Source: Opitutia bacterium
GTDB taxonomy: Bacteria > Verrucomicrobiota > Verrucomicrobiia > Opitutales > Opitutaceae
Reading direction: 5' to 3'
Length of the DNA: 42,675 bases
Assembly (NCBI GenBank): GCA_947472765.1
Contig: CANJCM010000037.1
Span: 1-42,675 of the forward strand
Every line of letters starts with the position of its first letter. Within the stretch, counting starts at the first letter, position 1. Shown here piece after piece: positions 1-42,675 of this stretch. The translations under genes and the position numbers were made by a program. The notes under the pieces are model-generated. The model searched no databases. It was not told the origin of the DNA and saw only the letters and a list, made by a program, of their open reading frames with translations.

Positions 1-58
1 CAGGCGTTGGAACGGCACCTCGCAGAAAACACCTCATCCCTTCCGTCGCGGATCCAAT

Positions 59-204
59 CGATTGAGACTCGCCCAATGGACTGATGCAGATTGGCCCGCC
101 AATCCTCCCGCTGCTCACGCAGCGGGCCACGACTGAAACGTGGCCCTGCCCCTGAGGGCAGGGATTCGAACCGTGATGTCAGGCTGATAGACGAGTCTCA
201 ATCG
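59..204. repeat. MITE-like 146-bp element with 13-bp terminal inverted repeats and two inner REP hairpins
   Basis: The ends CGATTGAGACTCG (59-71) and CGAGTCTCAATCG (192-204) are perfect inverted repeats. Inside are two hairpins whose tetranucleotides face each other. The first is 107-130: stem CCCGCTGC/GCAGCGGG, loop TCAC, then CCAC, which reads GTGG on the other strand. The second is 140-163: GTGG, stem CCCTGCCC/GGGCAGGG, loop CTGA. A diverged relative of the whole unit, including the flanks, sits at about 37423-37563. There is no gene inside. It is probably a non-autonomous mobile unit, but no target-site duplication was established. Confidence 0.6.
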
Positions 205-258
205 GGAGCCGGCTGCGGTCGCCGGTGCAGTTCTACCGGACGAAGCGCGTGGTCTGAA

Positions 259-335
259 GTGGCACGGGTCTCCCGACCCGTGAAAACGGAAACGTCAGCC
301 GTAACGATTCCCACGGGTCAGGAGACCCGTGCCAC
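259..335. repeat. REP family 1 inverted pair
   Basis: Two hairpins face each other across a spacer of about 29 nt. Each is GTGG (outermost) plus an 8-bp stem CACGGGTC/GACCCGTG, with loop TCCC in the first and AGGA in the second. The same stem recurs at 14267, 19558, 20777 and 21528. The last two copies flank the RAYT transposase gene, which links this family to that enzyme. Confidence 0.85.
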
Positions 336-357
336 GTGGGCCGCCCACGCGCGTGCA

Positions 358-394
358 CAATCGAAAATCGAGCATCAAAACTCGAAAATCAAAA
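358..394. repeat. A/T-rich repeat family 6 (AATCGAAAATC type) directly behind the tmRNA 3' end
   Basis: Short AATCGAAAATC-like units begin immediately after the CCA end of the tmRNA gene. Related strings lie directly behind the stop codons at 30205 (minus) and 38393 (plus), and next to family 4 REPs at 1018-1050 and 9964-9995. No T-run terminator hairpin was found for the tmRNA, so this repeat may serve as its 3' boundary. That role is inferred. Confidence 0.5.
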
Positions 395-750
395 TGGTGG
401 AGGTGGTGGGAGTTGAACCCACGTGCCCCTGACCTTCGCGCACCGCGTCTACCTAATATAGTGTGACTTTGATCTCGCCGATGTTACGCGATCACGCGCG
501 CTTAAGCATCAGCCAGTCCCCGGATGAAGATACAGCGCGCCGTCCGCGGACGGCTCCGCGCGCTATGCCTGCTGTCGACGTCAGTTCCCGCTAGCAGGTG
601 TCGCGGGACCGACGTGGCTGACCATTTAGGCAGCCAAGGGCATTTCTTCAGTGTTGCCGTTTGTTTTTTCGCAGGGGGATTTACGAGAGGCCCACGACTC
701 TCGACAGGCAGCGGCGCACTCCAACCAAGGGTAGAATCCAGAACACCCCC
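395..750 (-). ncRNA. ssrA: transfer-messenger RNA (tmRNA)
   Basis: tmRNA rescues stalled ribosomes: it acts as alanyl-tRNA, then templates a degradation tag. The 3' end (395-420) has the T-arm with GTTCAA, an acceptor strand CACCTCC, a discriminator A and encoded CCA. The 5' end at 750 gives GGGGGTG, which pairs with CACCTCC over 7 bp with one G-U. The following TTCTGGATTC matches the conserved tmRNA start. The tag frame runs from GAA at 670 to TAA at 626 and encodes EKTNGNTEEMPLAA, ending in the typical LAA. With the charged Ala the tag is A-EKTNGNTEEMPLAA. The resume codon is inferred from frame and position. Length is 356 nt, normal for one-piece tmRNA. A TPR gene ends upstream at 1074, so the RNA has its own transcription unit. 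No clear promoter was recognised. Confidence 0.93.
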
Positions 751-1073
751 GAAACTTCGGAGGGCGGATGACGGAGGCCGGTAAACCGGAACCCGAGTCC
801 GCCCGACGATTGGCGTGCAAACCAATCAAAGAACGAGGCGGAGACCATGCGGGGGTCGACGGGGATTGCAAGCGGGGCGGTGGGACAACCAATCCTTTGA
901 GCCTGAAGCCAGGAAGCCACGAACCGATCCTCGCGGAGAGGGAACTCGGTTCAGGAGTTCGTGGTTTCAGGCTCAACCGGATTGGTCTTGTCGGGCTGCC
1001 GCTGGTCGCAGACTGCGAGCATTTCGATTCCGAATTCTCGCTTTTCGATTGGGCCCGGCGGCGAGCGCCGGCC
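751..1073. other. intergenic region upstream of tmRNA with a long imperfect inverted repeat
   Basis: No gene is supported here. The arms at about 884-926 and 947-991 are imperfect inverted repeats; both carry GAGCCTGAA, CCACGAA and ACCAATCC-like blocks. A related GAGCCTGAAGCCAGGAA string occurs at 9777-9793. The part nearest 750 must contain the tmRNA promoter, but no convincing -10/-35 pair was identified. Confidence 0.5.
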
Positions 1074-1077
1074 CTAC
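1051..1077. repeat. REP family 4 hairpin containing the stop codon of the TPR gene
   Basis: On the minus strand this reads GTAG followed by GGCCGGCG, CTC and a GCCGCCGG-like return strand; the stem has a bulge. The TAG of GTAG (1076-1074) is the stop codon of the TPR/glycosyltransferase gene. Other members are at 9997-10020, 38460-38485 and 39684-39707. Confidence 0.75.
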
Positions 1078-3113: not shown

Positions 3114-3158
3114 GCAGAAACGACGATGAGCCGTCGCAGACCGGATGCCAACGCCGGT

Positions 3159-3209
3159 CGCACCCAAGCCCCGTTGTCATCTGTTAGATGACAACGGGGC
3201 TTGGGTGCG
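3159..3209. promoter_or_regulatory. perfect 24-bp palindrome with 3-nt loop between divergent genes
   Basis: Positions 3159-3182 are exactly complementary to 3186-3209 around the loop GTT; the inner arms read CCGTTGTCATCT and AGATGACAACGG. It lies 45 nt from the TPR gene start and about 87 nt from the oxidoreductase start, inside a divergent promoter region. There is no T-run on either side, so it is not a typical terminator. It does not fit the tetranucleotide-plus-8-bp REP plan. It could be an operator, an RNA hairpin in one leader, or a recent recombination product. Confidence 0.6.
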
Positions 3210-3296
3210 GAGGAAAATTACAGGAAAGTGGAGTGCGGTGGCGGCGGGGTGCGGCGCGACGTTGCCATGCGAGTCTCTGCCACGCCAATCTGCGAC

Positions 3297-4778: not shown

Positions 4779-5202
4779 CCACCGAGGCACAGAGGGCGGA
4801 GGGCGGACGGCGGCCAGGATTTTGCACTGCTGTACTGGCTACTCACTCAGTTCCGCGAGGATTTTGAACCGGGGGATCCGGGAGTTCGGGAAGCAATGGT
4901 TTCGACATTTCCCCGATCTCCCCGGCCTTCCTGTTTAATCTGGGTTGGCATCCTTTGGTTGCGGCTTCGCCGCGCTTTGATCCTTCGGAGCGGATTGAAG
5001 AATCTCCAGTCGTGGATTCTTCGCTGCGCTCAGAATGACAAGGGGTGGAGGTAGCCCGCGGCGTGAGCCGCGGGACGACGGCCGGTGCCGCCAGGCTTCC
5101 CTGCCCTCACGGGCAGGGCCACACCCAGCCGCAGACCGAAGACACGGTCTTCTCCGTGTCTCGGTGTCTCGGTGGTTAAACGGCTGGGGGCTGGGGCCCG
5201 GC
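4779..5202. other. repeat-filled intergenic region
   Basis: No gene is supported. An ACCACCGAGGCACAGAG-like unit (about 4777-4800, repeat family 8) is matched in inverted orientation by CTCGGTGGTTAAAC at 5169-5182. A second imperfect pair around 4871-4940 contains GGCCTTCCTGTTTAATC, related to the repeat at 12114-12192. A REP pair lies at 5051-5122. Confidence 0.5.
5051..5122. repeat. REP family 2 inverted pair
   Basis: First hairpin: GTAG, stem CCCGCGGC/GCCGCGGG, loop GTGA. Second hairpin, inverted: stem CCCTGCCC/GGGCAGGG, loop TCAC, then CCAC, so it reads GTGG-first on the minus strand. The two stems differ while the loop GTGA and the overall plan are the same. Confidence 0.8.
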
Positions 5203-6501
<1,299 letters not shown>

Positions 6502-6836
6502 GATGATGATGGGGGTTGAGGCGTCGAAGAACGGACAGCCGCTACCGGGCGTCAACTGAGTTTGGTGTTCTGGGTTCTGGGTTCCGGGTTCCGGGTTCCG
6601 GGTTCCGGGTTCCGGGTTTTGAGTTCTGTGTTCTGGGTTGTGCGGGAGGTTGCGAAGCACGGGGGCGGATCTAAGCGGTGCGCGGAACCCAAAACTCAGA
6701 ACCCAAAACGCTCCTCGTCCTCCAAACCCCGAACTCCAAACTCTTCGTCTTGCCCGGGCCCAGCCCCACGATAAGAGTTTCTCCCTCGCTCCCCGACCCC
6801 CGCCGGTAGCCCGCCGGTGACTTAATCCTTCCCCGC
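6502..6836. other. divergent intergenic region with heptamer tandem repeats
   Basis: This region separates metY (minus) from the DUF1592 gene (plus), so it should hold both promoters. Positions about 6562-6618 are a tandem array of 7-bp units GTTCCGG or GTTCTGG. A looser complementary set (CGGAACC, CCCAAAAC, CAGAACCC) follows at about 6682-6711, so the two could fold back on each other. No riboswitch matching a known sulfur-metabolism class was recognised. Confidence 0.6.
6562..6618 (+). repeat. heptanucleotide tandem repeat (GTTCCGG/GTTCTGG)
   Basis: Consecutive 7-bp units starting with GTTCTGG and then about five GTTCCGG copies. A short-period array such as this is prone to slippage. It sits within the upstream region of metY, so copy number could in principle affect expression; this is inference. 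Confidence 0.75.
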
Positions 6837-9617
6837 ATGAACTCGATCGCCGTCTCCTCCCGCCTGCCTCAGTCGCTCCGGTGGTTCGCCGGACTCGCCG
6901 CCCTGGCCAGCCTCGGTCCCGTCCTTCGCGCGGCGGCCGCGGCCCCCGCCCCCGCCGCGCTCGACAGCACCCTCGCTGACTTCACGGATCGCCACTGCTC
7001 TTCGTGTCACAACGACGTCGACAAGGAGGGCGGCCTCGACCTCACGAGCCTGACCTACGCGCCGCAGGACACGGGCAATTTCCTCACTTGGGTGAAGGTC
7101 CACGACCGGGTGCAGTCGGGCGAGATGCCGCCGAAGCAGAAGAAGCGTCCGGCGACCGCTGACCTCGGCAAGTTCGTCAACACCCTCGCCTCCTCCCTCA
7201 CAACCGCCGACCGCCAGGCCGCGACCCGCGAGGGCCGCGCCACGCAGCGCCGGCTCAACCGCTACGAGTTCGAGAACGCCGTCCGCGACCTGCTCCACGC
7301 GCCGTATCTCCAGTTGAAGAACGATCTGCCCGAGGACGGCGAGTCCGAGCTCTTCAACAAGATCGGCGACGCCCTCGATGTTTCGCACGTGCAGATGACA
7401 CGCTACATGAAGGCCGCGCAGCTCGCGATGCGGCACACGATGGGCGTGGAACTCAACCGGCTCGAACTTCCGCCGGCGAAGCTGGTGCGCTACCGGGCCC
7501 GCGATGAAGGCGTGCTCACGAAAACCTTCCACGGCGACAAGGCCCGCTTCATCCGTCAGAGCCCGGAGCGCAGCACGTTCCCGGTCCTTGGCTTCGAGGG
7601 CCAGCCCGACGTCCGCTCGCGGCGCGCGCCGCTGACGGTTGGGCCCAGCGATCCCGCCAAGTACGAACTCGAGGCCGTCGGCTGGAACCGCGGCAACTAC
7701 CATCCGTTTCACACCATCTGGGACGGCTTTCGCGCGCCGGTCGCGGGCAAGTATCGCGTGCGCTGGCTGGGCTACACCCTCTGGAGCGGCCCCTACGGCG
7801 TGAGCGCCGGCGACATCGGCGATGATCGCCGCAACAAGGACGCCCCGCCGGCGACAGGCCGCTGGAACTCCCCGGACGCCGACAATCTCTCCCGCGGTCG
7901 CCGCAACGAGCCGATCACCGTCTATGCGCAGGGACCGATCGATGTCCGCCGCGTCGGACAATTCGATCTCACACCCGACCCCGCCGTCTACGATCTCGGA
8001 GTGATCACGATGCTCGAGAACGAGGCGCTTGTGACCGATGCGTCCCGCTTCTTCCGCGACCGTCCCGGCTCGGCCGGCAATCCGCTCGCCCAACGCGACG
8101 GCCAGCCCGCCGTGGCATTCCGCTGGATGGAAGTCGAGGGGCCGCTCCTCGACGAATCCACGAGTGCGGGCTACAAGGTTCTGTTCGGTGATCTCGCGCT
8201 GAAGCGCGCCGAGAAGGGCGAACTCACTATTCCTGGTCTGGTGACGAAAGGTGAGCGCGGGCCCGACGGCGCCGGCGGCTACGGTCGCGTGCTGCGGACC
8301 CAGGACGTTCCGGTCGAAGTCGTTTCGACGGCGCCCGATGCCGACGCGGACCGTCTGCTCCGGGCGTTCATCAAGCGGGCCTATCGCCGCCCCGCGCAGG
8401 AAGCCGATGTCCAACGCTACCTCGCCGTGATTCGGAATGAGCTGAAGAACGGCCACGATTTCGGTTCGTCGATGCTGGCGGGCTACACCGCCGTGATTTG
8501 CTCGCCGCCGTTCCTTTACCTCGAGCAGGAACCCGGTCGCCTCGACAACTACGCCCTCGCCTCACGGCTCTCGTTCTTCCTCTGGAATTCGACGCCCGAC
8601 GAAGCCCTGCTCGCGCGGGCGGAACGCGGCGAGCTAACCAAGCCCGACGTCCTTCGCACCGAAACCGAGCGGATGCTACAGGACCCGAAGTCGCGCCGGT
8701 TCGTCGAGGCCTTCCTCGATTTCTGGCTCGAGCTGCGCAAGCAGGATTCCACCACCCCCTCGAACACGCTCTATCCCGATTACTATCTCGACGAGGGCCT
8801 CGTGGAGGCGGCGCTCGACGAATCGCGGATGTTCTTCACCGAACTTCTGACCCGGGACCTCCCGGCGAAGAACGTGATCAACTCCGACTTCACCTATCTC
8901 AACGAGCGCCTCGCCGTCCACTACGGCATCCCCGGCGTCGAGGGCGGCTCGATGCGGCGGGTCTCGCTCCCGGCCGACAGCGTGCGCGGCGGCGTCATGA
9001 CCCAGGCGATCGTGCTGAAGGTCACCGCCAACGGCACCGCGACCTCCCCCGTGATCCGCGGCAAGTGGATCAGCGAACGCATCCTCGGCCGCCCGATTCC
9101 CGCGCCGCCGGCGTCGGTCCCCGCCGTCGATCCCGACACGCGCGGCGCCGTCACGATTCGCCAGCAACTGGAGAAGCACCGCGCCGACGAAAGTTGCGGT
9201 GCGTGCCACCGGAAGATCGACCCGCAGGGCTTCGCGCTCGAGGGCTTCGACGTGATGGGTGCCTGGCGCGATCGCTACCGCGGCGATGCCAAGGACAAGG
9301 TCCCCGCCGCCGGCCAGGGCAAGAACGGCTGGCCGTTCGATTTCCACTTCGCGCTGCCGGTGGAATCGCAGGGCGAACTGCCCGATGGCCGGAAGTTCAA
9401 GGACGTCCGCGAATTCAAGCAGCTCATCCTCAAGGACGAGACGCAGATCGCGCGCAACCTCGCCCGCCACCTCGCCGTTTACGCAACGTCGGCGCCGGTC
9501 CGCTTCGCTGACCGCGAACAAATCGAGAAGATCCTGAATCAGACGAAGACGCACCAGTACGGCGTGCGCAGCCTGATTCATTCGATCGTCCAGAGTGATC
9601 TCTTCCTGAACAAGTAA
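6837..9617 (+). CDS. secreted diheme DUF1587/DUF1592/DUF1588/DUF1585-family protein (paralog 1)
   Basis: A protein of 926 aa with an N-terminal signal peptide (about 1-35). The first c-type heme site, CSSCH at 54-58, lies in a Planctomycete-type cytochrome domain followed by [15 protein letters not shown]. The middle contains the DUF1587/DUF1595/DUF1592 blocks ([44 protein letters not shown]) and DUF1588 (LAVHYGIPG through [11 protein letters not shown]). A second heme site, CGACH at about 787-791, begins the DUF1585 end region ([18 protein letters not shown]). Such proteins are periplasmic or surface-bound in PVC bacteria and often pair with DUF1552 proteins; no such partner is adjacent here. 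Function is unproven; a redox role is likely. A terminator follows at 9637. It is strongly similar to the gene at 16653. Confidence 0.87.
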
Positions 9618-9636
9618 GCAGGGATTTCAGACTTCG

Positions 9637-9672
9637 AGCCCGGGTGTCCGCGATGCGGAGCCCGGGCTTTTT
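9637..9672 (+). terminator. rho-independent terminator of the DUF1592 gene
   Basis: Stem AGCCCGGG (9637-9644) pairs with CCCGGGCT (9661-9668), with additional partial pairing inside (GTCCGC/GCGGA), followed by TTTT to 9672. It begins 19 nt after the stop codon. Confidence 0.85.
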
Positions 9673-9807
9673 CGTGTCGGCGTTGGACTACCCCCGGATG
9701 TTTAACCACGAAGGCACGAAGACACAGAGCCCTGAGTATTCCCGATGCCTCGGTCGCTAAATCAGGGGACGGACCTGAGCCTGAAGCCAGGAATCCAGAA
9801 GTCGGAT

Positions 9808-9831
9808 GGAGGGCCGGTGCCCTCACCGGCC
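9808..9831 (+). repeat. GGAG-type REP hairpin
   Basis: GGAG followed by stem GGCCGGTG/CACCGGCC with loop CCCT. The same stem occurs inverted at 19676-19699; related stems are at 16255-16278 and 16334-16356. Confidence 0.75.
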
Positions 9832-9846
9832 TGGAATGCCGTCAGT

Positions 9847-9922
9847 GGGCGCGCACGAGGCGCGCCCCTACGAGGATGTTCGTTCGGCAACTCAGCCGTA
9901 GGGGCGTGGCTCGTCCACGCCC
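9847..9922. repeat. REP family 3 inverted pair
   Basis: First hairpin inverted: stem GGGCGCGC/GCGCGCCC, loop ACGAG, then CTAC (GTAG on the minus strand). Second: GTAG, stem GGGCGTGG/CCACGCCC, loop CTCGT. The tetranucleotides face inward. Confidence 0.85.
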
Positions 9923-9996
9923 GACACGCATCGTAGGGCTACCGCTCGTCGCCCAGCCTCGGGACTATCGATTTCGATTCCCGACTTTCGAACATT

Positions 9997-10020
9997 CCCG
10001 GCGGCGAGCGCCGGCCCTAC
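9997..10020. repeat. REP family 4 hairpin abutting the tgt stop codon
   Basis: On the minus strand GTAG (10020-10017) follows the TAG stop of the Tgt fusion gene (10023-10021) with no base between, then GGCCGGCG, CTC and the return strand GCCGCCGG. Confidence 0.75.
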
Positions 10021-12847: not shown

Positions 12848-12892
12848 GTCGGGTTCGCCGCGCTCACGGCACTTTCTCCTTCCCCCAACCCC

Positions 12893-14110: not shown

Positions 14111-14142
14111 TCGGCCTTCACGTGCAGAGCCGCTCTGCCGAC

Positions 14143-14217
14143 GTGGCCCTGTCCGTGAGGACAGGGACTTCTCATCGCTTCGCCTGAAGCCGTCCCGCTG
14201 CTCACGCAGCGGGCTAC
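14143..14217. repeat. REP family 2 inverted pair
   Basis: First: GTGG, stem CCCTGTCC/GGACAGGG, loop GTGA. Second, inverted: stem CCCGCTGC/GCAGCGGG, loop TCAC, then CTAC. Here the tetranucleotides are outermost, opposite to the arrangement in the copy at 107-163. The loop GTGA is conserved while stem bases change in compensating pairs. Confidence 0.85.
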
Positions 14218-14266
14218 CAAGGCACCTTCGGAGTCCAGAGCGCCAGCCGACGAGGTCGGGCACTTT

Positions 14267-14343
14267 GTGGCACGGGTCTCCTGACCCGTGAGTGACGTTA
14301 CGCCGCGCGTTATTGCTTTCACGGGTCGGGAGACCCGTGCCAC
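14267..14343. repeat. REP family 1 inverted pair
   Basis: GTGG plus stem CACGGGTC/GACCCGTG, loop TCCT, spacer of about 29 nt, then the inverted partner with loop GGGA and CCAC. It starts about five bases beyond the stop codon of the minus-strand sugar dehydrogenase gene. Confidence 0.85.
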
Positions 14344-14348
14344 TGGCA

Positions 14349-16124: not shown

Positions 16125-16254
16125 CGCAGGGGCAGGCAGACGCTCCGCGCAAGCGAGACGGAAGGATCGGGCTTGGCAAGCGGCGTTCTGGGAGAGAGGG
16201 ACTTGGAGCAAAGGGCACCCCTCTCGAGCCGGAACGAGGCAGTGGAACGAAATC

Positions 16255-16356
16255 GGCGGGTGTGGGCACCCGCCCTCCATGGGAGGCGGATCGTTCAGAC
16301 TTCAGTTCGCTCTCCTCTCCAAGAGCAATCCCTGGAGGGACGGTGCCCCACCGTCC
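16255..16356. repeat. two GGAG-type REP hairpins in inverted order
   Basis: First: stem GGCGGGTG/CACCCGCC, loop TGGG, then CTCC (16255-16278). Second: GGAG, stem GGACGGTG/CACCGTCC, loop CCC (16334-16356). Paired stem changes between copies argue that the fold is maintained. Confidence 0.7.
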
Positions 16357-16418
16357 AATCGGGCGACTATCACTCATCCGCAGCAGTCGACGATTAAGAA
16401 GCACCGTACGTCAGGCCA

Positions 16419-16493
16419 GGCGTGGACGAGCCTCGCCCCTACGACGGTTTTCGTTTCCGCCGCCCTTCGTAGGGGCGCGCCTCGTGCGCGCCC
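16419..16493. repeat. REP family 3 inverted pair (one arm degenerate)
   Basis: The intact arm at 16469-16493 has GTAG, stem GGGCGCGC/GCGCGCCC and loop CTCGT. The other arm at 16419-16442 (GGCGTGGACGAGCCTCGCCCC then TAC) has lost part of its pairing. Confidence 0.75.
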
Positions 16494-19469: not shown

Positions 19470-19557
19470 GACCAGGGGGTGGGTTGACTCCAAATTGGGC
19501 CTCCGAAAGCGAACGGCCGGATCGAACCAAGACCGAAATACGAGACGACGGCAAGCC

Positions 19558-19634
19558 GTGGCACGGGTCTCCCGACCCGTGATGACAGAAAAGTGCGGCG
19601 TTAGGTCCTTCACGGGTCCGGAGACCCGTGCCAC
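19558..19634. repeat. REP family 1 inverted pair
   Basis: GTGG plus stem CACGGGTC/GACCCGTG, loop TCCC, then the inverted partner with loop CGGA and CCAC. It sits between the amidohydrolase and DUF1592 genes, which are both on the minus strand. Confidence 0.85.
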
Positions 19635-19675: not shown

Positions 19676-19699
19676 GGCCGGTGGGGGCACCGGCCCTCC
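19676..19699 (-). repeat. GGAG-type REP hairpin behind the amidohydrolase stop
   Basis: Stem GGCCGGTG/CACCGGCC, loop GGGG, then CTCC (GGAG on the minus strand). It begins five bases after the amidohydrolase stop codon and matches the stem at 9808-9831. Confidence 0.75.
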
Positions 19700-20776: not shown

Positions 20777-20888
20777 GTGGCACGGGTCTCCCGACCCGTG
20801 GAAACCGTTCCACAACCCTTACCGCCACCTTCGGAACCCCACTTATGTGGGTCTTCCCGCTCTTCACGGGTCAGGAGACCCGTGCCAC
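20777..20888. repeat. REP family 1 pair, left flank of the RAYT gene
   Basis: Hairpin one, 20777-20800 (GTGG, stem CACGGGTC/GACCCGTG, loop TCCC). Hairpin two, inverted, 20865-20888 (loop AGGA, then CCAC). The 64-nt spacer is longer than in other copies and matches the spacer of the right-flank copy with about 12 mismatches, so the RAYT gene lies between 112-bp direct repeats. Confidence 0.9.
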
Positions 20889-20897
20889 CACGGTCGG

Positions 20898-21566
20898 GTG
20901 AACATCCTGCACGCTCACCAAGTCACCGTCCGACAGGGCGCCTATCTTCCTCACTGGACCGCTCCGGGCGGCATCTACGCCGTTTGCTTCCGACTTGCGG
21001 ATTCCCTTCCCCAAGCGGTCATCCTGGGTTGGAGAGCCGAGCGCGAACAGGCGCTCGCGGAAGCCCAGCAAGAGTCGCTCCCGGGCCCAAGGCGGCAGCG
21101 GCTCGCTCTTGTGGAAGAACAAATGTCCAAACGTTTCGACGCACTGTTGGATGCGGGTCGTGGCGCTTGTTGGCTCCGAAAGCAGATCGTCGCGGAAATG
21201 GTTGCAGCCACCTTGCGCCATTTCGACGGCCGGCGGTATTTTCTCTCCGCGTGGTGCGTGATGCCGAATCACGTGCATGTCGTCGTCGAGCCCGCCCAAA
21301 GTTTCGAGCTTAGTGCGATCTTGAAGTCGTGGAAGGGCTACTCGGCCACACAGGCCCATCGACTGCTCGGACTGCAGGACGCATTCTGGCAGACCGAGTA
21401 CTACGATCACCTGATCCGCGATGAAACCGACTTCGTGCACAGCGTGAGCTACGTCCTGGACAATCCCCCTCGGGCCGGACTGACGTCCTGGCCATGGGTG
21501 TGGGCGAGCGAAACGGCGCTGGCCCGAGTGGCACGGGTCTCCCGACCCGTGGAAATCGTTCCGTAA
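20898..21566 (+). CDS. REP-associated tyrosine transposase (RAYT), Y1/HUH family
   Basis: A protein of 222 aa from the GTG at 20898. Single-strand DNA transposase of the IS200-like Y1 class: the HUH metal motif is H125-V-H127 within VMPNHVHVVVEP, and the candidate catalytic tyrosine is Y185 in SYVLDNPPRAGL. Both are hallmark RAYT positions. RAYTs recognise and cut REP hairpins in other bacteria. Identical REP pairs end 9 nt upstream of the start and begin inside the 3' end of the gene; the last residues (VARVSRPVEIVP) are translated REP DNA and the stop lies in its spacer. In-frame sequence before 20898 is also REP and was excluded. Both motifs are intact, so it is probably active. Confidence 0.9.
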   Translation: MNILHAHQVTVRQGAYLPHWTAPGGIYAVCFRLADSLPQAVILGWRAEREQALAEAQQESLPGPRRQRLALVEEQMSKRFDALLDAGRGACWLRKQIVAEMVAATLRHFDGRRYFLSAWCVMPNHVHVVVEPAQSFELSAILKSWKGYSATQAHRLLGLQDAFWQTEYYDHLIRDETDFVHSVSYVLDNPPRAGLTSWPWVWASETALARVARVSRPVEIVP

Positions 21567-21639
21567 TCCTTACCGCCACCTTCAGAAACGCACGTAGGTG
21601 GGTCGGCCTGCTCTTCACGGGTCAGGAGACCCGTGCCAC
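21528..21639. repeat. REP family 1 pair, right flank of the RAYT gene
   Basis: GTGG and stem CACGGGTC/GACCCGTG (21528-21551, loop TCCC), 64-nt spacer, then the inverted hairpin 21616-21639 (loop AGGA, CCAC). It overlaps the last 39 bases of the RAYT gene. It ends 21 nt from the stop of the minus-strand sialidase-like gene. Confidence 0.9.
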
Positions 21640-26744: not shown

Positions 26745-26831
26745 GTCTTTTCACTGACAGGGACGTCGCATACCCCGGCGATATCCGTTTCCGAACGTGA
26801 CCCCTCCTCGGGCGCACGTTTCAATCGGCCC

Positions 26832-27743
26832 GTGAATTCTCCCTCGGCCAAACCCCGCGTCGGCTGCATCGGCGCCGGTGTCCTCGGAAGCGCGATCATG
26901 CAGCGTCTCGTCGCCCAAGGCTTCGCGCCCGTCGTCTGGAATCGGGACCGCGCCAAGCTCTCCCCGCTCGTCGCAGCCGGGGCCGTTGCCGCCGGGAGTC
27001 CGGCGGAGCTCACCGCCCAGGTCGCGTTCGTGATCACCTGCGTCAGCGACGGCCCTGCGCTCGAGAGCGTGGTATTTGGCGAGCGAGGTGTCGCGTCGGC
27101 TGGCTCCTCAAACAAGATCCTCATCGACATGTCCACCTGTGCGCCGGCCCAGGCACGGGATCTCGCGGCCCGGCTGCTGACGCGGTGTGACATGCCCTGG
27201 CTGGATGCGCCGATCTCCGGAGGCGCACCGGCCGCTCGCGAAGGGCGGATGGCGATCATGGTTGGCGGCGATGCCGCGGTGTTCGAGCGGGCCCGTCCGA
27301 TTTGGGACGTCCTTGCCAGCCGCGCGACGCGGATGGGCCCGAGCGGCTCCGGTCAGGCGACGAAGATGATCAATCAGGTGCTGGTCTCGACCGGCGTGGC
27401 CGTGCTGGCCGAGGCGTGCGCGCTGGCGGAACGGGCCGGAATTGATGCCGCCATGATACCCCACGCGCTGGCGGGTGGACGGGCTGATTCGCGCCAGTTG
27501 CAGGAGATGTTTCCGAAGATGGTCGCGTCGGATTTCTCAATTACCGGGCGGGCGGCGCTGCTGTTGAAAGATCTCGAGCTGATCCACGATCTCGCCCGGC
27601 AGGTCGGCTCGCCGATGCCGGTGACCGCCGGCGTGACCGAATCGTATCGCAAGATGGTCGCCGACGGCTGGGGCGACCGCGACAACTGCGAACTCGTCCG
27701 CTATTATCGCGGCGTGCCGGCGAAGCCGGCATTTGAGATTTGA
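26832..27743 (+). CDS. NAD(P)-dependent 3-hydroxyisobutyrate dehydrogenase-family oxidoreductase
   Basis: A protein of 303 aa, cytoplasmic. N-terminal Rossmann motif GAGVLG (14-19), substrate-binding DAPISGG (125-131) and the catalytic lysine K178 in GSGQATKMINQ are all present; these define the beta-hydroxyacid dehydrogenase family (3-hydroxyisobutyrate or tartronate semialdehyde reductase types). The exact acid is not predictable. The start must be the GTG at 26832 because the first ATG lies beyond the Rossmann glycines. The final residues KPAFEI and the TGA stop come from a REP family 5 hairpin and its ATTTGA tail, so the native C-terminus has probably been replaced. Confidence 0.88.
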   Translation: MNSPSAKPRVGCIGAGVLGSAIMQRLVAQGFAPVVWNRDRAKLSPLVAAGAVAAGSPAELTAQVAFVITCVSDGPALESVVFGERGVASAGSSNKILIDMSTCAPAQARDLAARLLTRCDMPWLDAPISGGAPAAREGRMAIMVGGDAAVFERARPIWDVLASRATRMGPSGSGQATKMINQVLVSTGVAVLAEACALAERAGIDAAMIPHALAGGRADSRQLQEMFPKMVASDFSITGRAALLLKDLELIHDLARQVGSPMPVTAGVTESYRKMVADGWGDRDNCELVRYYRGVPAKPAFEI

Positions 27744-27839
27744 AATTTGAGATCTGAGACGGGGAACGACGACCTGCCCTTCCCTCTCAAATTTCAGATC
27801 TCAAATCTCATATGGGCTGCCGCAGCCGCGGCAGCCTAC
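27716..27839. repeat. REP family 5 cluster forming both ends of two convergent genes
   Basis: Left hairpin GCCGGC/GCCGGC (loop GAA, 27716-27730), then ATTTGAGATTTGAAATTTGAG. This pairs with CTCAAATTTCAGATCTCAAAT on the right. Then a hairpin with stem GCTGCCGC/GCGGCAGC and loop AGCC, and CTAC (27836-27839). The plus-strand stop TGA and the minus-strand stop TAG (inside GTAG) are both part of the element. Confidence 0.85.
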
Positions 27840-29832: not shown

Positions 29833-30204
29833 GAGGTGATGGCCGAAGGTTGAGAGGTGAGAGGTGAGAGCCCAGAGCCCAAGCCGGGCGCGGACGAGGC
29901 ACGCCCCTACGATTGGTGACGTTCGAACTGCATCGTAGGGGCGCGCCTCGTGCGCGCCCGGTCCGACGGATTTTTTAACGCAGAGGTCGCTGAGGTGAAC
30001 GGAGGACTCAGAGGACGGGTTTGGATTCGGAGATACGTTGTCCGAACCCAAAAATCCCTCCGCGCCCTCCGTTCACCTCTGCGCCCTCTGCGATCCAAAT
30101 CAGGCTCGAAAACGCACCTATCTGCCGAACACCGCGTGAATCACTTCGCTCACTCTCAGCCCGCCTGGAAATCCAAAATCGAGAATCCAAAATCGAAAAT
30201 CCCA
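29833..30204. other. repeat-filled region between convergent genes
   Basis: No gene is supported. A TTGAGAGGTGAGAGG tandem string (29850-29870; inverse relatives at 39729-39758), a family 3 REP pair (29886-29959), an inverted pair of GAGGTGAACGGAGG-type units (about 29990-30003 and 30068-30081), and family 6 AATCGAGAATCCAAAATCGA ending at the stop of the minus-strand dehydrogenase gene. Confidence 0.6.
29886..29959. repeat. REP family 3 inverted pair
   Basis: Intact arm 29935-29959: GTAG, stem GGGCGCGC/GCGCGCCC, loop CTCGT. The partner at 29886-29910 is inverted (loop ACGAG, then CTAC) with mismatches in the stem. Confidence 0.8.
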
Positions 30205-33237: not shown

Positions 33238-33257
33238 TGGCGTGCGGACGTGGATTC

Positions 33258-33331
33258 GGGCGTGGACGAGCCACACCCCTCCGACGGGTTGCGTTCGAGA
33301 ATCATCGTAGGGGCGCGCCTCGTGCGCGCCC
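33258..33331. repeat. REP family 3 inverted pair
   Basis: Arm 33307-33331: GTAG, stem GGGCGCGC/GCGCGCCC, loop CTCGT. Partner 33258-33282: stem GGGCGTGG/CCACACCC with one mismatch, loop ACGAG. It lies between the esterase and dehydrogenase genes on the minus strand. Confidence 0.8.
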
Positions 33332-33359
33332 TGAACAGCAGGTCGAGGGTCGGATTGTC

Positions 33360-34190: not shown

Positions 34191-34565
34191 GGGGTTGGGG
34201 AATTTGAGATTTGAGATCTGAAATCTGAGACCAGAGGGGCGGCACCGACGGGGTGGGTCCAAGAACATCCGCCGCGCCCTCCGGCGCAAGCCCGCCGCGG
34301 CGCCAGCCGCGAGGCGGCTGGCATTTGAGATTTGAAATTTGAGATTTGAGAGCCGGAACCCGAACCCAACGACCCCTACTCGAACCTGGCAGTCCAGCCC
34401 ACCTCCGATCTCAAATTTCAAATCTCAGATCTCAAATGCAGAACCTCGGGCCGGCCGGCCCGAGGTTCTGCTTGATGCGAGTCGCGGGCTTCGGTGTGAT
34501 TTTTCGGTACGCGGATCCGTCGCAGCGCCAATTCAGGCGCCAGGGCTGTTTCGCGTCTCCCCCCC
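34191..34565. other. divergent intergenic region occupied by REP family 5 DNA
   Basis: No gene is supported. Repeat units AATTTGAGATTTGAGATCTG (34201-34220), ATTTGAGATTTGAAATTTGA (34323-34342) and the inverse TCAAATTTCAAATCTCAGAT (34411-34430) can pair in alternative ways. Hairpin GCCAGCCGC/GCGGCTGGC (loop GAG) lies at 34302-34322, and a 34-nt perfect palindrome at 34438-34471. About 95 nt remain upstream of the DUF5916 gene for its promoter. Confidence 0.65.
34438..34471. repeat. perfect 34-nt palindrome
   Basis: Arm GCAGAACCTCGGGCCGG is exactly complementary to the following 17 bases, with no spacer. It terminates the family 5 cluster on the right, as GTAG hairpins do elsewhere. Confidence 0.85.
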
Positions 34566-37265: not shown

Positions 37266-37685
37266 GTCTGACAGGACGGGTTTTCGGAGTTTGGACAGGA
37301 TGACAGGATGGGCAGGATGCCGGCGATTCCGAGCCACCAGACCCGGCCGTGGACAGGATTGCAGGATGAGGCAGGATTCAGGCGACTTTGGATCGGGTTG
37401 CGACCATCAGGAGTGAGCTATTGAGGCCCGCTCAATAGACTGACGTATTCGAAAGCCAGCCCTCCCGCTGCTCACGCAGCGGGCCACGACTGAAATGTAG
37501 CCCTGCCCGTGAGGGCAGGGAGTTCGAAACTCACGGTCAGCCTAATCGACGAAACGCAATAAAACGGAGCATGGCTCGGAACTACGGTCTCCATCCTGCC
37601 CATCCTGTCATCCTGTCCAAAAACGCCTGCGGCTCGAAATCCTGTCGATTGACGCCGCGCGGTCGCTGCGTGTGCTTGTGGCCCG
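37266..37685. other. intergenic region with nested repeats
   Basis: No gene is supported. Family 7 arms 37292-37318 and 37592-37619 are exact inverted repeats (GGACAGGATGACAGGATGGG on the left); a further family 7 fragment lies at 37349-37375. Between them lies a diverged copy (about 37423-37563) of the MITE-like element of 59-204, with REP hairpins at 37464-37520. No terminator with a T-run was found for the DUF5916 gene. Confidence 0.6.
37464..37520. repeat. REP family 2 inverted pair
   Basis: Stem CCCGCTGC/GCAGCGGG, loop TCAC, CCAC; then GTAG, stem CCCTGCCC/GGGCAGGG, loop GTGA. The tetranucleotides face inward, as in the copy at 107-163. Confidence 0.85.
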
Positions 37686-38393: not shown

Positions 38394-38625
38394 CGGGATT
38401 TTCGATTTTGGATTCTCGATTGGCGGACAGACACACCCGGGTGCTCCGCATGGATTGCCGTAGGGCCGGCGTTCATCGCCGGGCCCCGTCAAGACTGGTC
38501 GCATCGTAGGGGCGTGGCTCGTCCACGCCCGGCGCCACCCACTCGGGCGCGGTCGAGGCGCGCCCCTACAACGGTTGGCGTCACCTTCTTCGCCGGTCAG
38601 AGACCCCCGCTACTCGCCGCGTCAC
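38394..38625. repeat. repeat cluster: family 6, family 4 and family 3 REPs
   Basis: GGGATTTTCGATTTTGGATT at 38396-38415 (family 6). GTAG with stem GGCCGGCG/CGCCGGGCC, loop TTCAT (38460-38485, family 4). Family 3 hairpins at 38506-38530 (stem GGGCGTGG/CCACGCCC, loop CTCGT) and, inverted, 38545-38569 (stem GGGCGCGG/GCGCGCCC with one mismatch, loop TCGAG, CTAC). The cluster lies between convergent genes. Confidence 0.8.
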
Positions 38626-39429: not shown

Positions 39430-39590
39430 GGATCGGAGAAAGCAGGCGAAGCCGGGGGTGACAAGGATGCGCGCGTGCCATCCGGACATCTCAGTGGCGA
39501 TCGCGGCCAGAACACAGTCGTCCCGGCCCTGACAAGAAATCGACGATCGAGTGACGGTATCCCCACCGTCCACGGCGCTCGTTCGGAGTC

Positions 39591-39657
39591 GGGCGTGCAC
39601 GAGGCACGCCCCTCCATCGATTGTCCTTACGTGTAGGGGCGTGCCTCATCCGCGCCC
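39591..39657. repeat. REP family 3 inverted pair
   Basis: Stem GGGCGTGC/GCACGCCC, loop ACGAG, CTCC; then GTAG, stem GGGCGTGC with a partly mismatched return strand CCGCGCCC, loop CTCAT. Confidence 0.75.
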
Positions 39658-39683
39658 GATCTGGGTTTCAAATCTCCACGTGG

Positions 39684-39707
39684 CCAGGCGGCGAGCGCCG
39701 GCCCTAC
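39684..39707. repeat. REP family 4 hairpin
   Basis: CCAGGCGGCGAGCGCCGGCC followed by CTAC; on the minus strand GTAG plus GGCCGGCG with a bulged return strand. Same sequence core as 1051-1077 and 9997-10020. Confidence 0.75.
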
Positions 39708-39768
39708 AGTCGGGCCACCCGTCCCCACTCTCAACTCTCAGCCCTCAACTCTCAACTCCGTCCCCCTC

Positions 39769-41145
39769 TCACAACCCCGCCAGCCGCGTCTCCGCATCGC
39801 CAAAACGATTCAGCCGCACGCCCATCCGGTCCATGATACCGAGGTAGAGGCTGCACAGCTTCCGGTTGTCGTCGCCGGCGTCGAGGTAGTCGAGGGACCG
39901 ACCCGTCGCCAGCGCGCCGTCGAGTCCGCCGACCGTGAGGACCGGGACCTTCCGGTTGTCGTGCTTGGTCCCGGACCACATGTTCGAGATGAACATCAGA
40001 CAACTGTGGTCGAGCACGTTGCCTTCGCCTTCGGGCATCGCGGCGAGTTTCTGCGCGAGATAGGAAAGCTGGCCGACGTGGAAGCGCGCGATCTTCTCGT
40101 AGTCCTCCGAGGTGTCGTAATGCGAGGCACCGTGATGGCCGTCCTTCACGCTGAGGAACGGATAATACAGCGACGACAAATCTCGCGCCAGCAGAAGCGA
40201 GGCCACGCGGGTTTTGTCCGTCTGGAAACCGAGGGCGATGATGTCGCACATCAGCCTGACATGATCGCGCAGATCCTCGGGCAGGCCGTTCTCCGGCCGC
40301 TTCATGGTGAGCGTGGGACGGCCCGCGGCCTTCGCCCGGGTGTCGGCCGAGTCCTTGTCGGCTCGCATCCGTTCGATGCTGCGTTCGACGTCACGGACGC
40401 TGCCGAGGTATTCGTCGAGCTTCGCCTTGTCCGTCGCGCTGATCTTCCGGCCAAGCTTGGCCGCGTGGTCCTTCACGCGATCGAGCACGCTGATGTTGCG
40501 CAGGCTGCCGCCGTTCTCGAACAGGCTGTCGAACGCGAGCGACGGATAGAGCTCGTTCGGCACCGGCGAGTCCGCGTTCTGCCACGAAATGTGCGAGCTG
40601 TAGGCGTTGGAAAAATTCGTCTCGTGGTAACCCGTCATCGGCGCCTCGCAGGCGAGCACCATGCTGGGTTGCAACGTGTCCTGACCGATGTGGTTCGCGA
40701 TCATCTGGTCCATGCTGATGCCGCCGTGGATGATCGCGCCCTGCTGAATCGGCACGCCCGAGAGCAGGTTGCCCGTCATGGCCGGGTGAATGCCATGACC
40801 CGTGGCCGGCTCGGTGAAGAGCCCGCGGATCACGTTCACCTTGCTCTTCAGTGGCTCGAGCGGCGTGAGGGACTTGCTCAGCTCGAAGTCCGCACCTGAA
40901 CCCTTGGCCCACCAGTGCTCCGGACTGATGCCGCAGCCCATGAACATCACGCCGAAGCGCTTCGGGTGACCGGACGCGGTCAGCATGCCGGGCAGTCCCG
41001 ACTCGGCCGCCCGCAGGCCGCCGCCCAGTCCGGAGGACAACGACTCGAGCCAAGGCAGCGCCATCGTGACGCCGACGCCGCGCAGGAAAGTCCGACGGGA
41101 AAGTCCGGCCGAGGCGGCACGGGAGGCGAAGGGCGAATGGCTCAT
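39769..41145 (-). CDS. Tat-exported DUF1552 family protein
   Basis: A protein of 458 aa with a twin-arginine signal (LSRRTFLRGVGVTMALPWLE, R17-R18). The rest is a full-length DUF1552 domain: FGVMFMGCGISPEHWW, KVNVIRGLFTEPATGHGIHPAM, LLSG, SMDQMIANHIGQ, DEYLGSVRDVERSIERM and GHHGASHY, ending near LYLGIMDRMGV. DUF1552 proteins belong to the alkaline-phosphatase-like DUF1501 group of PVC and acidobacterial exported proteins and are typically encoded beside a DUF1592 gene, as here. Function is unproven. The ATG at 41145 gives the signal. The partner gene ends 160 nt upstream, with a REP pair between them. Confidence 0.88.
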   Translation of the reverse strand: MSHSPFASRAASAGLSRRTFLRGVGVTMALPWLESLSSGLGGGLRAAESGLPGMLTASGHPKRFGVMFMGCGISPEHWWAKGSGADFELSKSLTPLEPLKSKVNVIRGLFTEPATGHGIHPAMTGNLLSGVPIQQGAIIHGGISMDQMIANHIGQDTLQPSMVLACEAPMTGYHETNFSNAYSSHISWQNADSPVPNELYPSLAFDSLFENGGSLRNISVLDRVKDHAAKLGRKISATDKAKLDEYLGSVRDVERSIERMRADKDSADTRAKAAGRPTLTMKRPENGLPEDLRDHVRLMCDIIALGFQTDKTRVASLLLARDLSSLYYPFLSVKDGHHGASHYDTSEDYEKIARFHVGQLSYLAQKLAAMPEGEGNVLDHSCLMFISNMWSGTKHDNRKVPVLTVGGLDGALATGRSLDYLDAGDDNRKLCSLYLGIMDRMGVRLNRFGDAETRLAGL

Positions 41146-41205
41146 GGGCGGCGGGGGTGAAATTGAACTATCGGCAGCGGAATGGACGAAGGTGCGCTGG
41201 CTGGT

Positions 41206-41282
41206 GTAGCCCTGCCCGTGAGGGCAGGGACCTTTTCGCGACACGACTCGCAATCTTTCCCGCTGCTCACGTAGCGGGCCAC
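41206..41282. repeat. REP family 2 inverted pair
   Basis: GTAG, stem CCCTGCCC/GGGCAGGG, loop GTGA (41206-41229). Inverted partner stem CCCGCTGC/GTAGCGGG (one G-T pair), loop TCAC, CCAC (41259-41282). Inserted between the DUF1592 and DUF1552 genes of one likely operon. Confidence 0.85.
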
Positions 41283-41305
41283 GAAGCCGGTTTGGGAAAC
41301 CAAAC

Positions 41306-42675
41306 TCATGGCGACTCCGAGGCCGAGACCGACTCGCGGCCGCGGCGATGCGTGAACTGCCGGCTCGTGACGATGCCCTCGACGAGCGTTTCGAAACGAT
41401 ACCCGCCCGCGGCGAGCTCGCGTTGCAACGACTCCGTCAGCGGCTCGTCGGTGATGAGGAGGCTGCGGCCGAGAGCATAGGCGAGCAGCTTGCTGTTGAG
41501 GTTGCGGACGAAGCCGTCCTGCCGGCGTTCGCGGATGTATTTCCTCACGCCGTCGAGGCCCTCGCCTTCCGAGCCGCCGGGGAAAGTCGCCCGCGCCTCA
41601 ATCGCCCGGCCCGCCAGATCCTTTTCGCGGCGTTCGCCAATGGGGCCATAGCCCTCGAACACGAGCCCGAGCGAGTCGAAGCGCTCGTGGCACGCCGCGC
41701 AGTTCGGATCGATGCGGTGCCGTGCGAGCACTTCACGCAGGGGCAGATCGAGATGCGCCTCGTCCTTCGGCAGCTCCGGCACATTCGGCGGCGGGGGCGG
41801 GATGCGTTCCCCGAGCACGTTTTTCACGAGCCAGTTGCCGCGCTTTACCGGACTTGTGCGCAGGCCCGGCGCGTTCTTGGTCAGAAACGCCGCCATCGGC
41901 AGCAACCCGCCGCGGCCGTATTGCCCCGCGTTATCGATCCGAACCCAGCCGGCGTCCGGTGCCGCCTTTGCCGCTGCGCCCCGCCCCGCCTTCGCCGGAG
42001 CCGCGTAGGGAACACCATAATGCTGCGCCAGCGGCGCGTTCACGAAGGTGTGATTGGCGTACAGAAAATCCAGCACCGGGCTGCGGCCCTGAAAGACTTC
42101 GAGCAGGAAGCGCACGGGCTCCTCGAACATCGCCTGCTTCAGCTCCGGCGTGAACGCGGGGAAGCGATCGCGGTCGACCGTCGCGATGTCCTCGAAGCGC
42201 CGGAAATCCAGCCAGTTCCCGCCGAACTCCACGGCCAGCGCCCGCGCCCGCGGGTCCCGCAGCATCCGGCGCGCCTGCGCCTTCAACACCGCGGGGTCAT
42301 GGAGTTTGCCCGCTTTGGCCTGCGCCAGCAGCTCGGCATCCGGCAGGCTCGACCACAGGAAATAGCTCAGCCGGCTCGCCAGATCAGTGTCCGAGAGCGG
42401 ATGCACGCCGGTGCCCGGCTCCGCCAAATCGATCCGGTAGGTGAACTCCGGCGACATCAGGATCAGCACGAGCGTCTCGCGCAACGCGGTCTCGTGATCG
42501 AGTCCATCGCGGGTCCGGCCCGTCCGGTAGAACTCGAGCAAATCGTCGCGTTCCTCCTTCGCCAGCGGCCGCCGAAACGCGCGCGCGGCCAGGTCGAGCA
42601 GCGCCTGGATGTGTCCCGGTTCCGCCGCGAGCCGCGCGCGCTCCACGGCGCGAATGCCTTCATCGGTGATCCGGA
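41306..42675 (-). CDS. DUF1595/DUF1592/DUF1588/DUF1585-family protein, 5' part outside the window
   Basis: The frame stays open to the window edge (codons for RITDEGIRAVERARL precede any start), so the N-terminal cytochrome part is missing from view. Visible in order: FRRPLAKEERDDLLEFY (DUF1595), LVLILMSPEFTYR and LASRLSYFLWSSLPDAEL (DUF1592), LAQHYGVPY and RTSPVKRGNWLVKNVLGE (DUF1588), then CAACH with ERFDSLGLVFEGYGPIGE (DUF1585). It is only distantly similar to the two paralogs at 6837 and 16653. It pairs with the DUF1552 gene downstream in the usual order. Probably exported and redox active; the true function is not established. Confidence 0.88.
   Translation of the reverse strand, partial: RITDEGIRAVERARLAAEPGHIQALLDLAARAFRRPLAKEERDDLLEFYRTGRTRDGLDHETALRETLVLILMSPEFTYRIDLAEPGTGVHPLSDTDLASRLSYFLWSSLPDAELLAQAKAGKLHDPAVLKAQARRMLRDPRARALAVEFGGNWLDFRRFEDIATVDRDRFPAFTPELKQAMFEEPVRFLLEVFQGRSPVLDFLYANHTFVNAPLAQHYGVPYAAPAKAGRGAAAKAAPDAGWVRIDNAGQYGRGGLLPMAAFLTKNAPGLRTSPVKRGNWLVKNVLGERIPPPPPNVPELPKDEAHLDLPLREVLARHRIDPNCAACHERFDSLGLVFEGYGPIGERREKDLAGRAIEARATFPGGSEGEGLDGVRKYIRERRQDGFVRNLNSKLLAYALGRSLLITDEPLTESLQRELAAGGYRFETLVEGIVTSRQFTHRRGRESVSASESP

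What the first reader, a model, noticed from the sequence alone, without database searches (positions are those of the whole stretch)
1..42675. At least four unrelated REP stems share one grammar across the window
Seen: hairpins made of GTGG, GTAG or GGAG, an approximately 8-bp GC-rich stem and a 3-5 nt loop recur in nearly every gap. The stems are unrelated: CACGGGTC (family 1, loop TCCN), CCCTGCCC/CCCGCTGC/CCCGCGGC (family 2, loop GTGA), GGGCGCGC/GGGCGTGG (family 3, loop CTCGT), and GGCCGGTG-type (GGAG). Within families, stem bases change in compensating pairs while loop and tetranucleotide stay fixed. Inference: either several RAYTs, each with its own REP, or one enzyme reading tetranucleotide and fold. 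Only one RAYT is in the window.
Basis: partly seen in the sequence, partly recalled or inferred. Interest (0 to 1): 0.72.

Follow-up and report, generated by a model that had tools for sequence, protein, structure and literature searches.

The report
Several coexisting REP–RAYT transposase pairs
This bacterium's genome carries several families of short hairpin repeats, most of which can be matched to their own small DNA-cutting enzyme gene, here or in a related species; this is a well-described type of bacterial mobile repeat, with one family showing an unusual recognition tag.

Summary
The hairpins are real, far above chance and genome-wide. Exact patterns found 119 to 368 copies per family in the 4.97-Mb genome, none with reversed control patterns. 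Stem changes are compensated (F2 123 of 128 variant positions, F4 79 of 83, F5 13 of 14; F3 only 17 of 25). The tag is not fixed within F2 (GTGG 38, GTAG 28 of 69).

The genome has eight RAYT-like genes. Three are each flanked by essentially one family: window RAYT by F1, C32 RAYT by F4, C9 RAYT by F2. RAYTs flanked by F3- and F5-type hairpins were found in another genome of the genus, not here, so F3 and F5 look orphaned (assembly loss not excluded). Stem and loop co-diverge with RAYT sequence over 39 genus loci.

This matches published REP/RAYT biology. Less usual: four related RAYTs whose REPs carry GGAG instead of GT[AG]G, and F2 dimers that sit at the tip of another palindrome with a repeated triplet.

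The parts
20901..21566 (+). RAYT (REP-associated tyrosine transposase), 221 aa if started at the GTG (my choice of start); keeps HxH and the Y..NP motif; its last codons and stop lie in the downstream F1 dimer
   Evidence: Pfam PF01797 E 4.3e-7 for the longer ORF; NCBIfam NF047646 E 6.1e-21, 74.8 bits, under the curated cut-off of 80; alignment
20777..20888 (.). F1 dimer (heads outward, 64-nt linker) upstream of the RAYT
   Evidence: 89% identical 114-nt repeat of the downstream one
21528..21639 (.). F1 dimer (heads outward, 64-nt linker) downstream of the RAYT
259..335 (.). F1 dimer, heads outward, 29-nt linker
14267..14343 (.). F1 dimer, heads outward, 29-nt linker
19558..19634 (.). F1 dimer, heads outward, 29-nt linker
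107..163 (.). F2 dimer, heads inward, 9-nt linker, CCCGCTGC with CCCTGCCC; inside a 146-bp unit at 59-204 with inverted ends
37464..37520 (.). F2 dimer, heads inward, 9-nt linker; one tag GTGG, the other GTAG
5051..5122 (.). F2 dimer, heads outward, CCCGCGGC with CCCTGCCC
14143..14217 (.). F2 dimer, heads outward, GTGG-CCCTGTCC with GTAG-CCCGCTGC
41206..41229 (+). F2 REP GTAG-CCCTGCCC; a degenerate F2 copy lies near 41258
9847..9922 (.). F3 dimer, heads inward, GGGCGCGC with GGGCGTGG
29886..29959 (.). F3 dimer, heads inward; one arm decayed (6 of 8 pairs)
16469..16493 (+). F3 REP; related copy near 16414
33307..33331 (+). F3 REP; related copy near 33254
38506..38530 (+). F3 REP GTAG-GGGCGTGG; related copy near 38541
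39591..39615 (-). F3-stem REP with a GGAG tag; related copy near 39628
9808..9831 (+). F4 REP, GGAG-GGCCGGTG
16255..16278 (-). F4 REP, GGAG-GGCGGGTG
19676..19699 (-). F4 REP, GGAG-GGCCGGTG
1053..1077 (-). F5 REP, GTAG-GGCCGGCG-ctcgc with one unpaired G
9996..10020 (-). F5 REP, degenerate (6 of 8 pairs)
38460..38484 (+). F5 REP, loop TTCAT
39683..39707 (-). F5 REP, degenerate (6 of 8 pairs)
3159..3209 (.). unfilled copy of the palindrome that carries F2 units elsewhere (24-bp stem, loop GTT)

Best explanation
The hairpins are REP sequences of at least five REP-RAYT pairs that share or have shared this genome. Each RAYT (an HuH, IS200/IS605-like single-strand nuclease) recognises its own REP: the tag at the hairpin foot sets cleavage, and the loop and stem give specificity. 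It then copies or moves REP dimers around the genome. Stems drift by compensated changes that keep the fold; each RAYT and its REP diverge together, so several enzymes coexist with separate REP sets. F1, F2 and F4 have their RAYT in this genome; F3 and F5 are leftovers of RAYTs lost from it or missing from the assembly. Shown here: copies, compensation, flank specificity, co-divergence, and F3- and F5-flanked RAYTs in another genome of the genus. Inferred: recognition, cleavage and movement, from published work on E. coli, Stenotrophomonas and Marinomonas RAYTs.
For: Flank specificity of three RAYTs. Seven F5-type hairpins (six tagged GTAG) flank the RAYT in L107, and five F3-type hairpins flank the one in L101, both of genome G021. 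The best own-genome match to those two RAYTs is the F4 RAYT at 35-36% identity. Copy numbers are patchy: F4 368 here and at most 5 in any of 26 other genomes of the genus. RAYT tree: tag labels need 13 changes against a shuffled mean of 28.6, as low in 0 of 200. Stem and loop co-divergence. HxH, Y and NP kept in all five RAYTs aligned. Dimer geometry: F1 heads outward in 12 of 12, F2 heads inward always 9 nt apart (9 of 9), F4 heads inward at 55 nt in 13 of 18 and 54 nt in one.
Against: No F3 or F5 cognate RAYT was found in this genome (157 contigs, 95.9% complete), although each family has over 130 copies. Around L101 only one of five F3-type hairpins carries GTAG (others GTCG, GTCA, GCAG; two have 6 of 8 pairs). 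The C9 RAYT's own F2 stems (mainly CCCGCTCC, CCCTGCGC) differ from the dispersed majority (CCCGCTGC). G021 has 128 F1 copies without an F1 RAYT at E 1e-20, though at least eight of its contigs begin within 40 nt of an F1 copy, so assembly loss is possible. Of 62 genus loci 21, and of 80 named ones 26, gave no tag with at least two hairpins. Tag identity alone does not correlate significantly with RAYT identity. Predicted cleavage dinucleotides (CT for GTAG, CC for GTGG) are not seen at a common fixed offset. No activity was measured.
Confidence: 0.9

Rival explanations
1. One RAYT reads only tag and fold and serves all the hairpin families, whatever their stem.
For: The families share a G[TG][AG]G tag and a stem of about 8 bp. 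Published tests found E. coli TnpAREP active on REPs of another species that share few features (PMC8266576, section 16).
Against: Eight RAYT-like genes in the genome; three of them each flanked by essentially a single family; stem and loop co-diverge with RAYT.
Confidence: 0.04
2. The hairpins are transcription terminators or RNA elements kept by selection in gene gaps, and the link to RAYTs is incidental.
For: REPs are reported to lie almost only between genes (PMC3686654, passage) and to have roles in cell physiology (PMC8266576 abstract). Location relative to genes was not measured here.
Against: Regular dimer geometry with similar linkers (mean identity 0.95 over nine F2 inward 9-nt linkers, 0.81 over 13 F2 outward ones) and flanks; patchy presence across one genus; RAYT flank specificity. 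F1 and F5 linkers are not conserved (0.47 and 0.38).
Confidence: 0.03
3. For F2, the mobile unit is a MITE with 14- to 17-bp inverted ends moved by a DDE-type transposase; the REPs are cargo.
For: 12 of 12 units with both ends found are 122 bp; an identical triplet lies 3 nt outside both ends in 5 of 12 and at none of 15 other offsets.
Against: The C9 RAYT is flanked by F2 REPs with no such ends near it. Other F2 dimers have other ends or none found: the heads-inward unit has CTATTGAGGCTCG ends (4 pairs). REP dimers inside palindromes are described for other REP families (PMC3733652, section 7). No transposase with such ends was sought.
Confidence: 0.2

Closest known systems
RAYT/REP systems of Stenotrophomonas and Pseudomonas (Nunvar 2010 PMC2817692 and Nunvar 2013 PMC3686654; passages only, including parts of the abstracts)
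   Same: Several RAYTs per genome, each flanked by its own REP; co-divergence of RAYT and REP; REPs left where the RAYT is absent; in stenotrophomonads eight or nine paired bases directly after the tag.
   Different: The tag is defined there as GT[AG]G; F4 here is GGAG. Two cognate-like RAYTs of this genome's families were found only in another species.
GTAG repeats and REPtrons, including O. terrae of the Verrucomicrobia (Di Nocera 2013 PMC3733652; passages and sections 5, 7, 14)
   Same: Multiple REP families with repeat-specific REPtrons, subfamilies with complementary stem changes, homo- and heterodimers in both orientations, GTGG in most O. terrae GTAG-20 copies, dimers inserted in other palindromes.
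   Different: Tag degeneracy listed there is GYAG, GYRG, GTRG, GTMG; GGAG is not among them. Consensus sequences are in a figure I could not see, so identity of F1-F5 with its families is untested.
TnpAREP subclasses (Quentin 2018 PMC6006769; passages and section 13)
   Same: HuH-Y1 protein with REPs in a REPtron arrangement; statement that each tnpAREP type has its own REP family.
   Different: Canonical tag given as GT[AG]G; class 3 has CnGA feet. No word beginning with GGAG in the main text.
TnpAREP recognition determinants (Corneloup 2021 PMC8266576; abstract, passages, sections 16, 17, 29)
   Same: 8-bp perfect-stem REPs read by tag plus loop, tag acting as a guide for the cleavage site.
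   Different: Substrates in the parts read were GTAG and point variants such as CTAG, GCAG, GTTG, GTAC, GTGG, and libraries; no GGAG substrate was named there.

Membership tests
REP sequence | GT[AG]G tag directly before a palindrome | tested here: met
   F1, F2, F3, F5, F6. For F4 taken alone it is not met: 85 of 90 GGAG, none GTAG or GTGG
REP sequence | High copy number, dispersed | tested here: met
   119 to 368 exact-pattern copies per family for F1-F5; F6 not counted genome-wide
REPIN/BIME | Inverted dimers at regular spacing | tested here: met
   In same-family clusters: F1 24 of 28, F2 57 of 67, F4 52 of 85; F3 only 12 of 38 and F5 14 of 32, with less regular gaps
RAYT (TnpAREP) | HuH-Y1 domain closer to RAYT than to IS200 | tested here: met
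   NF047646 is the best NCBIfam model for the ten proteins scanned; C32, L101 and L107 RAYTs pass its cut-off of 80 bits, the window RAYT (74.8), the C9 RAYT (40.9) and the five long proteins do not
RAYT (TnpAREP) | Flanked by inverted copies of its own REP | tested here: met
   Three RAYTs here; not met for the five long Y1 proteins
RAYT (TnpAREP) | Cleaves its REP as single strand | not testable with these tools
   needs purified protein
IS200/IS605 insertion sequence | Moves as one unit, several near-identical copies | tested here: not met
   the window RAYT has no second copy in the genome; next best match is 34% identical

The most novel reading that the evidence does not exclude
A clade of RAYTs has moved its REP tag from GTAG to GGAG (the C32 RAYT here and three in other genomes of the genus), and other RAYT relatives carry GGAT, GTGA or GTAT tags, so the guide is evolvable rather than fixed at GT[AG]G; this should shift the cleavage dinucleotide in a predictable way and help keep coexisting families apart.
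Probability: 0.45. Interest if true: 0.5.

Novelty: new member of a known kind. Interest (0 to 1): 0.33.

Why it matters
It gives a genus with many RAYT-REP pairs of diverse tags, stems and loops, enough to work out which part of the REP each enzyme reads. The GGAG group inside a mainly GTAG group is a natural experiment on the guide tetranucleotide. REP families that outnumber their visible RAYTs in two genomes may let the decay of REPs after RAYT loss be followed. The general phenomenon itself is established.

Tried and rejected
Cleavage-site prediction: if the tag acts as guide, GTAG REPs should keep CT and GTGG REPs CC nearby. Per-locus dinucleotide frequencies at 13 offsets on both sides showed no such common site: GTAG-CT at most 0.13 downstream (41 loci), GTGG-CC at most 0.12 (55 loci). 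The GGAG class (8 loci, some probably misframed GTGGAG) had CT at 0.31 just downstream. In this genome F2 had CT at +5 in 0.75 of GTAG and 0.42 of GTGG copies, within its conserved linker; F5 CT 0.34 at +3; the other families stayed at or below 0.25. Treated as negative.

Specificity residues: comparing four GGAG RAYTs with ten sisters gave seven columns with no shared residue, such as L for F just after the HxH. With four sequences of one group this separates descent, not function, so no claim is made.

The five long Y1 proteins (L001-L005, open frames 307-371 aa) were considered as cognates for F3 and F5. None has REPs on both sides; L002 has one F3 dimer about 400 nt away on one side and L001 one F3 copy at 1.5 kb, for a family with about one copy per 17 kb in the sample. 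Rejected, not excluded for L002.

A stricter caller of hairpin feet around 142 RAYT loci gave GTGG in 42 and GTAG in 21 loci with at least two copies, 62 of 142 with any of the three tags, but misplaced stem starts by one or two bases. The grammar-restricted caller was used for labels; it presupposes a G[TG][AG]G tag. Row dropped before the tree: L137, domain too short, so 61 of 62 genus loci were placed; the Mantel test used 39 of those 61 (at least two tagged hairpins). The 62 loci are 62 of the 201 matches in 27 genomes, chosen by score and mostly short open frames, not at random.

Literature searches for GGAG as a REP tag: 0 papers; one term was a word stem under whole-word matching, so weak; 'GGAG tetranucleotide' and 'GGAG motif' 0 in the ten papers listed of 13; words beginning GGAG occur 0 times in the main texts of PMC2817692, PMC3733652 and PMC6006769. 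Supplements and figures were not seen. The genus-wide spread of the L107 RAYT was not searched (one search failed, one search covered the own genome only).
Full report
What is there. The window (contig C37 of a 4.97-Mb, 157-contig genome, 95.9% complete) holds five families of tagged hairpins. F1 is GTGG-CACGGGTC-tccN. F2 is GTRG-CCC[TG]..-gtga, with main stems CCCGCTGC, CCCTGCCC, CCCTGTCC. F3 is GTAG-GGGCG..-ctcgt. F4 is (T)GGAG-GG[CA][CG]GGTG-yccN. A sixth family, GTAG-CGCCGGTC-tct, has five copies in the sampled stretches.

More than chance. I sampled 823,198 bases: the window plus 40 stretches, six of which were chosen because they hold RAYT-like genes and one for a weak hit. Before hairpins, GGAG, GTAG and GTGG rank first among tetranucleotides, at 126, 112 and 85 against 27, 33 and 21 in the 3'-side control. 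Exact-pattern counts over the whole genome were F1 119, F2 219, F3 157, F4 368 and F5 135, with 0 for the patterns read backwards. The F2 pattern did not cover CCCGCTGC stems, so 219 is a lower count. An earlier loose pattern gave 594 matches against 332 for its reversed control.

Compensation. In copies chosen by tag, 5' arm and loop, with the 3' arm free, the 3' base pairs with the variant base in 123 of 128 (F2), 79 of 83 (F4) and 13 of 14 (F5) variant positions. F3 is weaker, 17 of 25, with 8 still pairing with the majority base, as expected if F3 is decaying. The F1 pattern allowed no variants. The tag is mixed in F2 (GTGG 38, GTAG 28 of 69), and loops vary in F4 and F5.

Dimers. F1 dimers are heads outward in 12 of 12, 27-29 nt apart, except the two around the RAYT (64 nt). 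F2 has two geometries: heads inward, always 9 nt (9 of 9), pairing CCCGCTGC with CCCTGCCC; and heads outward, 28 nt in 13 of 19, pairing CCCGCTGC with CCCTGTCC (12 of 19) or CCCTGCCC (6 of 19). F4 heads inward pairs GGACGGTG with GGCGGGTG in 17 of 18. F3 dimers (6) are all heads inward, 8-26 nt; F5 dimers are heads outward in 6 of 7. Dimers of unlike stems are described for other species (PMC3733652, section 14).

RAYTs. The NF047646 model finds eight RAYT-like genes in this genome (the Pfam model found seven). The window RAYT (20901-21566) lies between two F1 dimers; 6 of 7 family hairpins within 1.5 kb are F1. The C32 RAYT (L006) has 8 of 8 F4. The C9 RAYT (L084) is a weak model match (40.9 bits, E 1.8e-10) that keeps HxH, Y and NP; its 5 of 5 tagged hairpins within 800 nt are F2-type (three CCCGCTCC, one CCCTGCCC, one CCCTGCGC, all loop gtga), so mostly not the stem most common in the genome. 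Five long Y1 proteins have no REPs on both sides.

Orphans. The RAYT on G021 contig C94 (L107) has seven F5-type hairpins around it, six tagged GTAG. The one on C111 (L101) has five F3-type hairpins, tagged GTAG, GTCG twice, GTCA and GCAG, two of them with only 6 of 8 pairs; the tag-restricted caller therefore labelled it 'none'. In this genome the best match to either is the F4 RAYT (35-36% identity). So F3 and F5 have no visible RAYT here. Conversely G021 has 128 F1 copies and no F1 RAYT at E 1e-20. REPs without their RAYT are reported in Nunvar 2013 (passages). Assembly loss is a real alternative: in the listing at least eight G021 contigs begin within 40 nt of an F1 copy.

Co-divergence. 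I fetched 62 of the 201 genus matches (three of them from this genome) and 80 named relatives of the window RAYT (the named scan kept the best 80 of 338). With at least two tagged hairpins as the rule, genus loci are GTAG 27, GTGG 9, GGAG 4, GGGG 1, none 21; named loci GTGG 42, GTAG 11, GGAG 1, none 26. On a tree of 61 genus domains the tag labels need 13 changes against 28.6 in shuffles (0 of 200 as low). The four GGAG loci form one group, support 88/79, below the tool's threshold of 95/80 but found in 90% of 200 bootstrap trees, inside a 17-row group with GTAG 9, none 3, GTGG 1. Over 39 loci with REP calls, RAYT identity correlates with stem similarity (r 0.36) and loop similarity (r 0.30), 0 of 2000 permutations each; with tag only r 0.09 (193 of 2000). 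Labels and similarities both rest on a caller that presupposes a G[TG][AG]G tag.

The GGAG tag. In this genome 85 of 90 F4 copies have GGAG and none GTAG or GTGG. Sister RAYTs mostly have TGTAG where F4 has TGGAG, so a change at tag position 2 is the simplest reading. In L091 and L099 some copies read GGGG, and L100 has CGGAG. Corneloup 2021 (passages) reports for one RAYT that the last two tag positions were the most strongly selected with one substrate and that the tag selects the cleavage dinucleotide; GGAG keeps positions 3 and 4. My search for cleavage dinucleotides by tag class was negative. Other loci carry repeated hairpins with GGAT (L124, L130), GTGA (L158, L212) or GTAT (L172, L177) feet; these were read from the printed hairpins and not tested further.

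F2 units. Twelve F2 units with both inverted ends TGGATTCCGAAGTT (up to 2 mismatches) are all exactly 122 bp; eleven further single matches to that end were found, six of them with F2 nearby. Three nucleotides further out, the triplets left and right are identical in 5 of 12 units, and at none of 15 other offsets. At least three sit at the tip of another palindrome, TTGTCATC-N5-GATGACAA (136-nt spacing in L032, L039, L051), of which 13 unfilled copies (5-nt spacing) were found in 843,198 bases; about 3 pairs at any spacing up to 260 nt are expected by chance. One unfilled copy is at 3159-3209 of the window. REP dimers within palindromes are known (PMC3733652, section 7). A triplet repeat is not expected from the IS200/IS605 mechanism (recalled), so a DDE-type mover is a rival for this unit.

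Host. The window's planctomycete-type cytochrome and DUF1592/1588 proteins and the named RAYT relatives (best: a Verrucomicrobia MAG at 60%; others labelled Opitutus, Planctomycetes, Acidobacteria and more) suggest Verrucomicrobiota. This is inference; RAYTs may be transferred.

Verdict. One REP family per RAYT is in print (PMC6006769 passage), and species with multiple families are said to have repeat-specific REPtrons, in a paper whose list of such species includes O. terrae.

Noticed in passing
3159-3209: 51-nt palindrome (24-bp stem, loop GTT), one of 13 unfilled copies of a palindrome family that elsewhere holds 122-bp F2 units at its tip, with a repeated triplet in 5 of 12 units.
   Followed up: partly
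L124, L130, L158, L212, L172, L177, L094, L137: RAYT-flanking hairpins with atypical feet: GGAT, GTGA, GTAT and GGGAGC.
   Followed up: partly
21528-21566: The window RAYT reads into the downstream F1 dimer, which supplies its last codons and stop codon.
   Followed up: no
20777-20888 and 21528-21639: The two F1 dimers beside the RAYT have 64-nt linkers; the ten other F1 dimers sampled have 27-29 nt.
   Followed up: no
L001-L005: Five Y1 transposase-like proteins with open frames of 307-371 aa and a long C-terminal part, without REPs on both sides.
   Followed up: partly
L045:1172-1328: An F2 unit flanked by a direct repeat of about 30 nt that includes half of the TGTCATC palindrome.
   Followed up: no
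6837-9617 and 16653-19634: Two related planctomycete-type cytochrome/DUF1592-1588 genes in opposite orientation, 70-89% alike in stretches.
   Followed up: no
6560-6643; 27725-27814; 34196-34444: Low-complexity repeats (GTTCCGG units; ATTTGAGATTTGA units), tandem or scattered.
   Followed up: no
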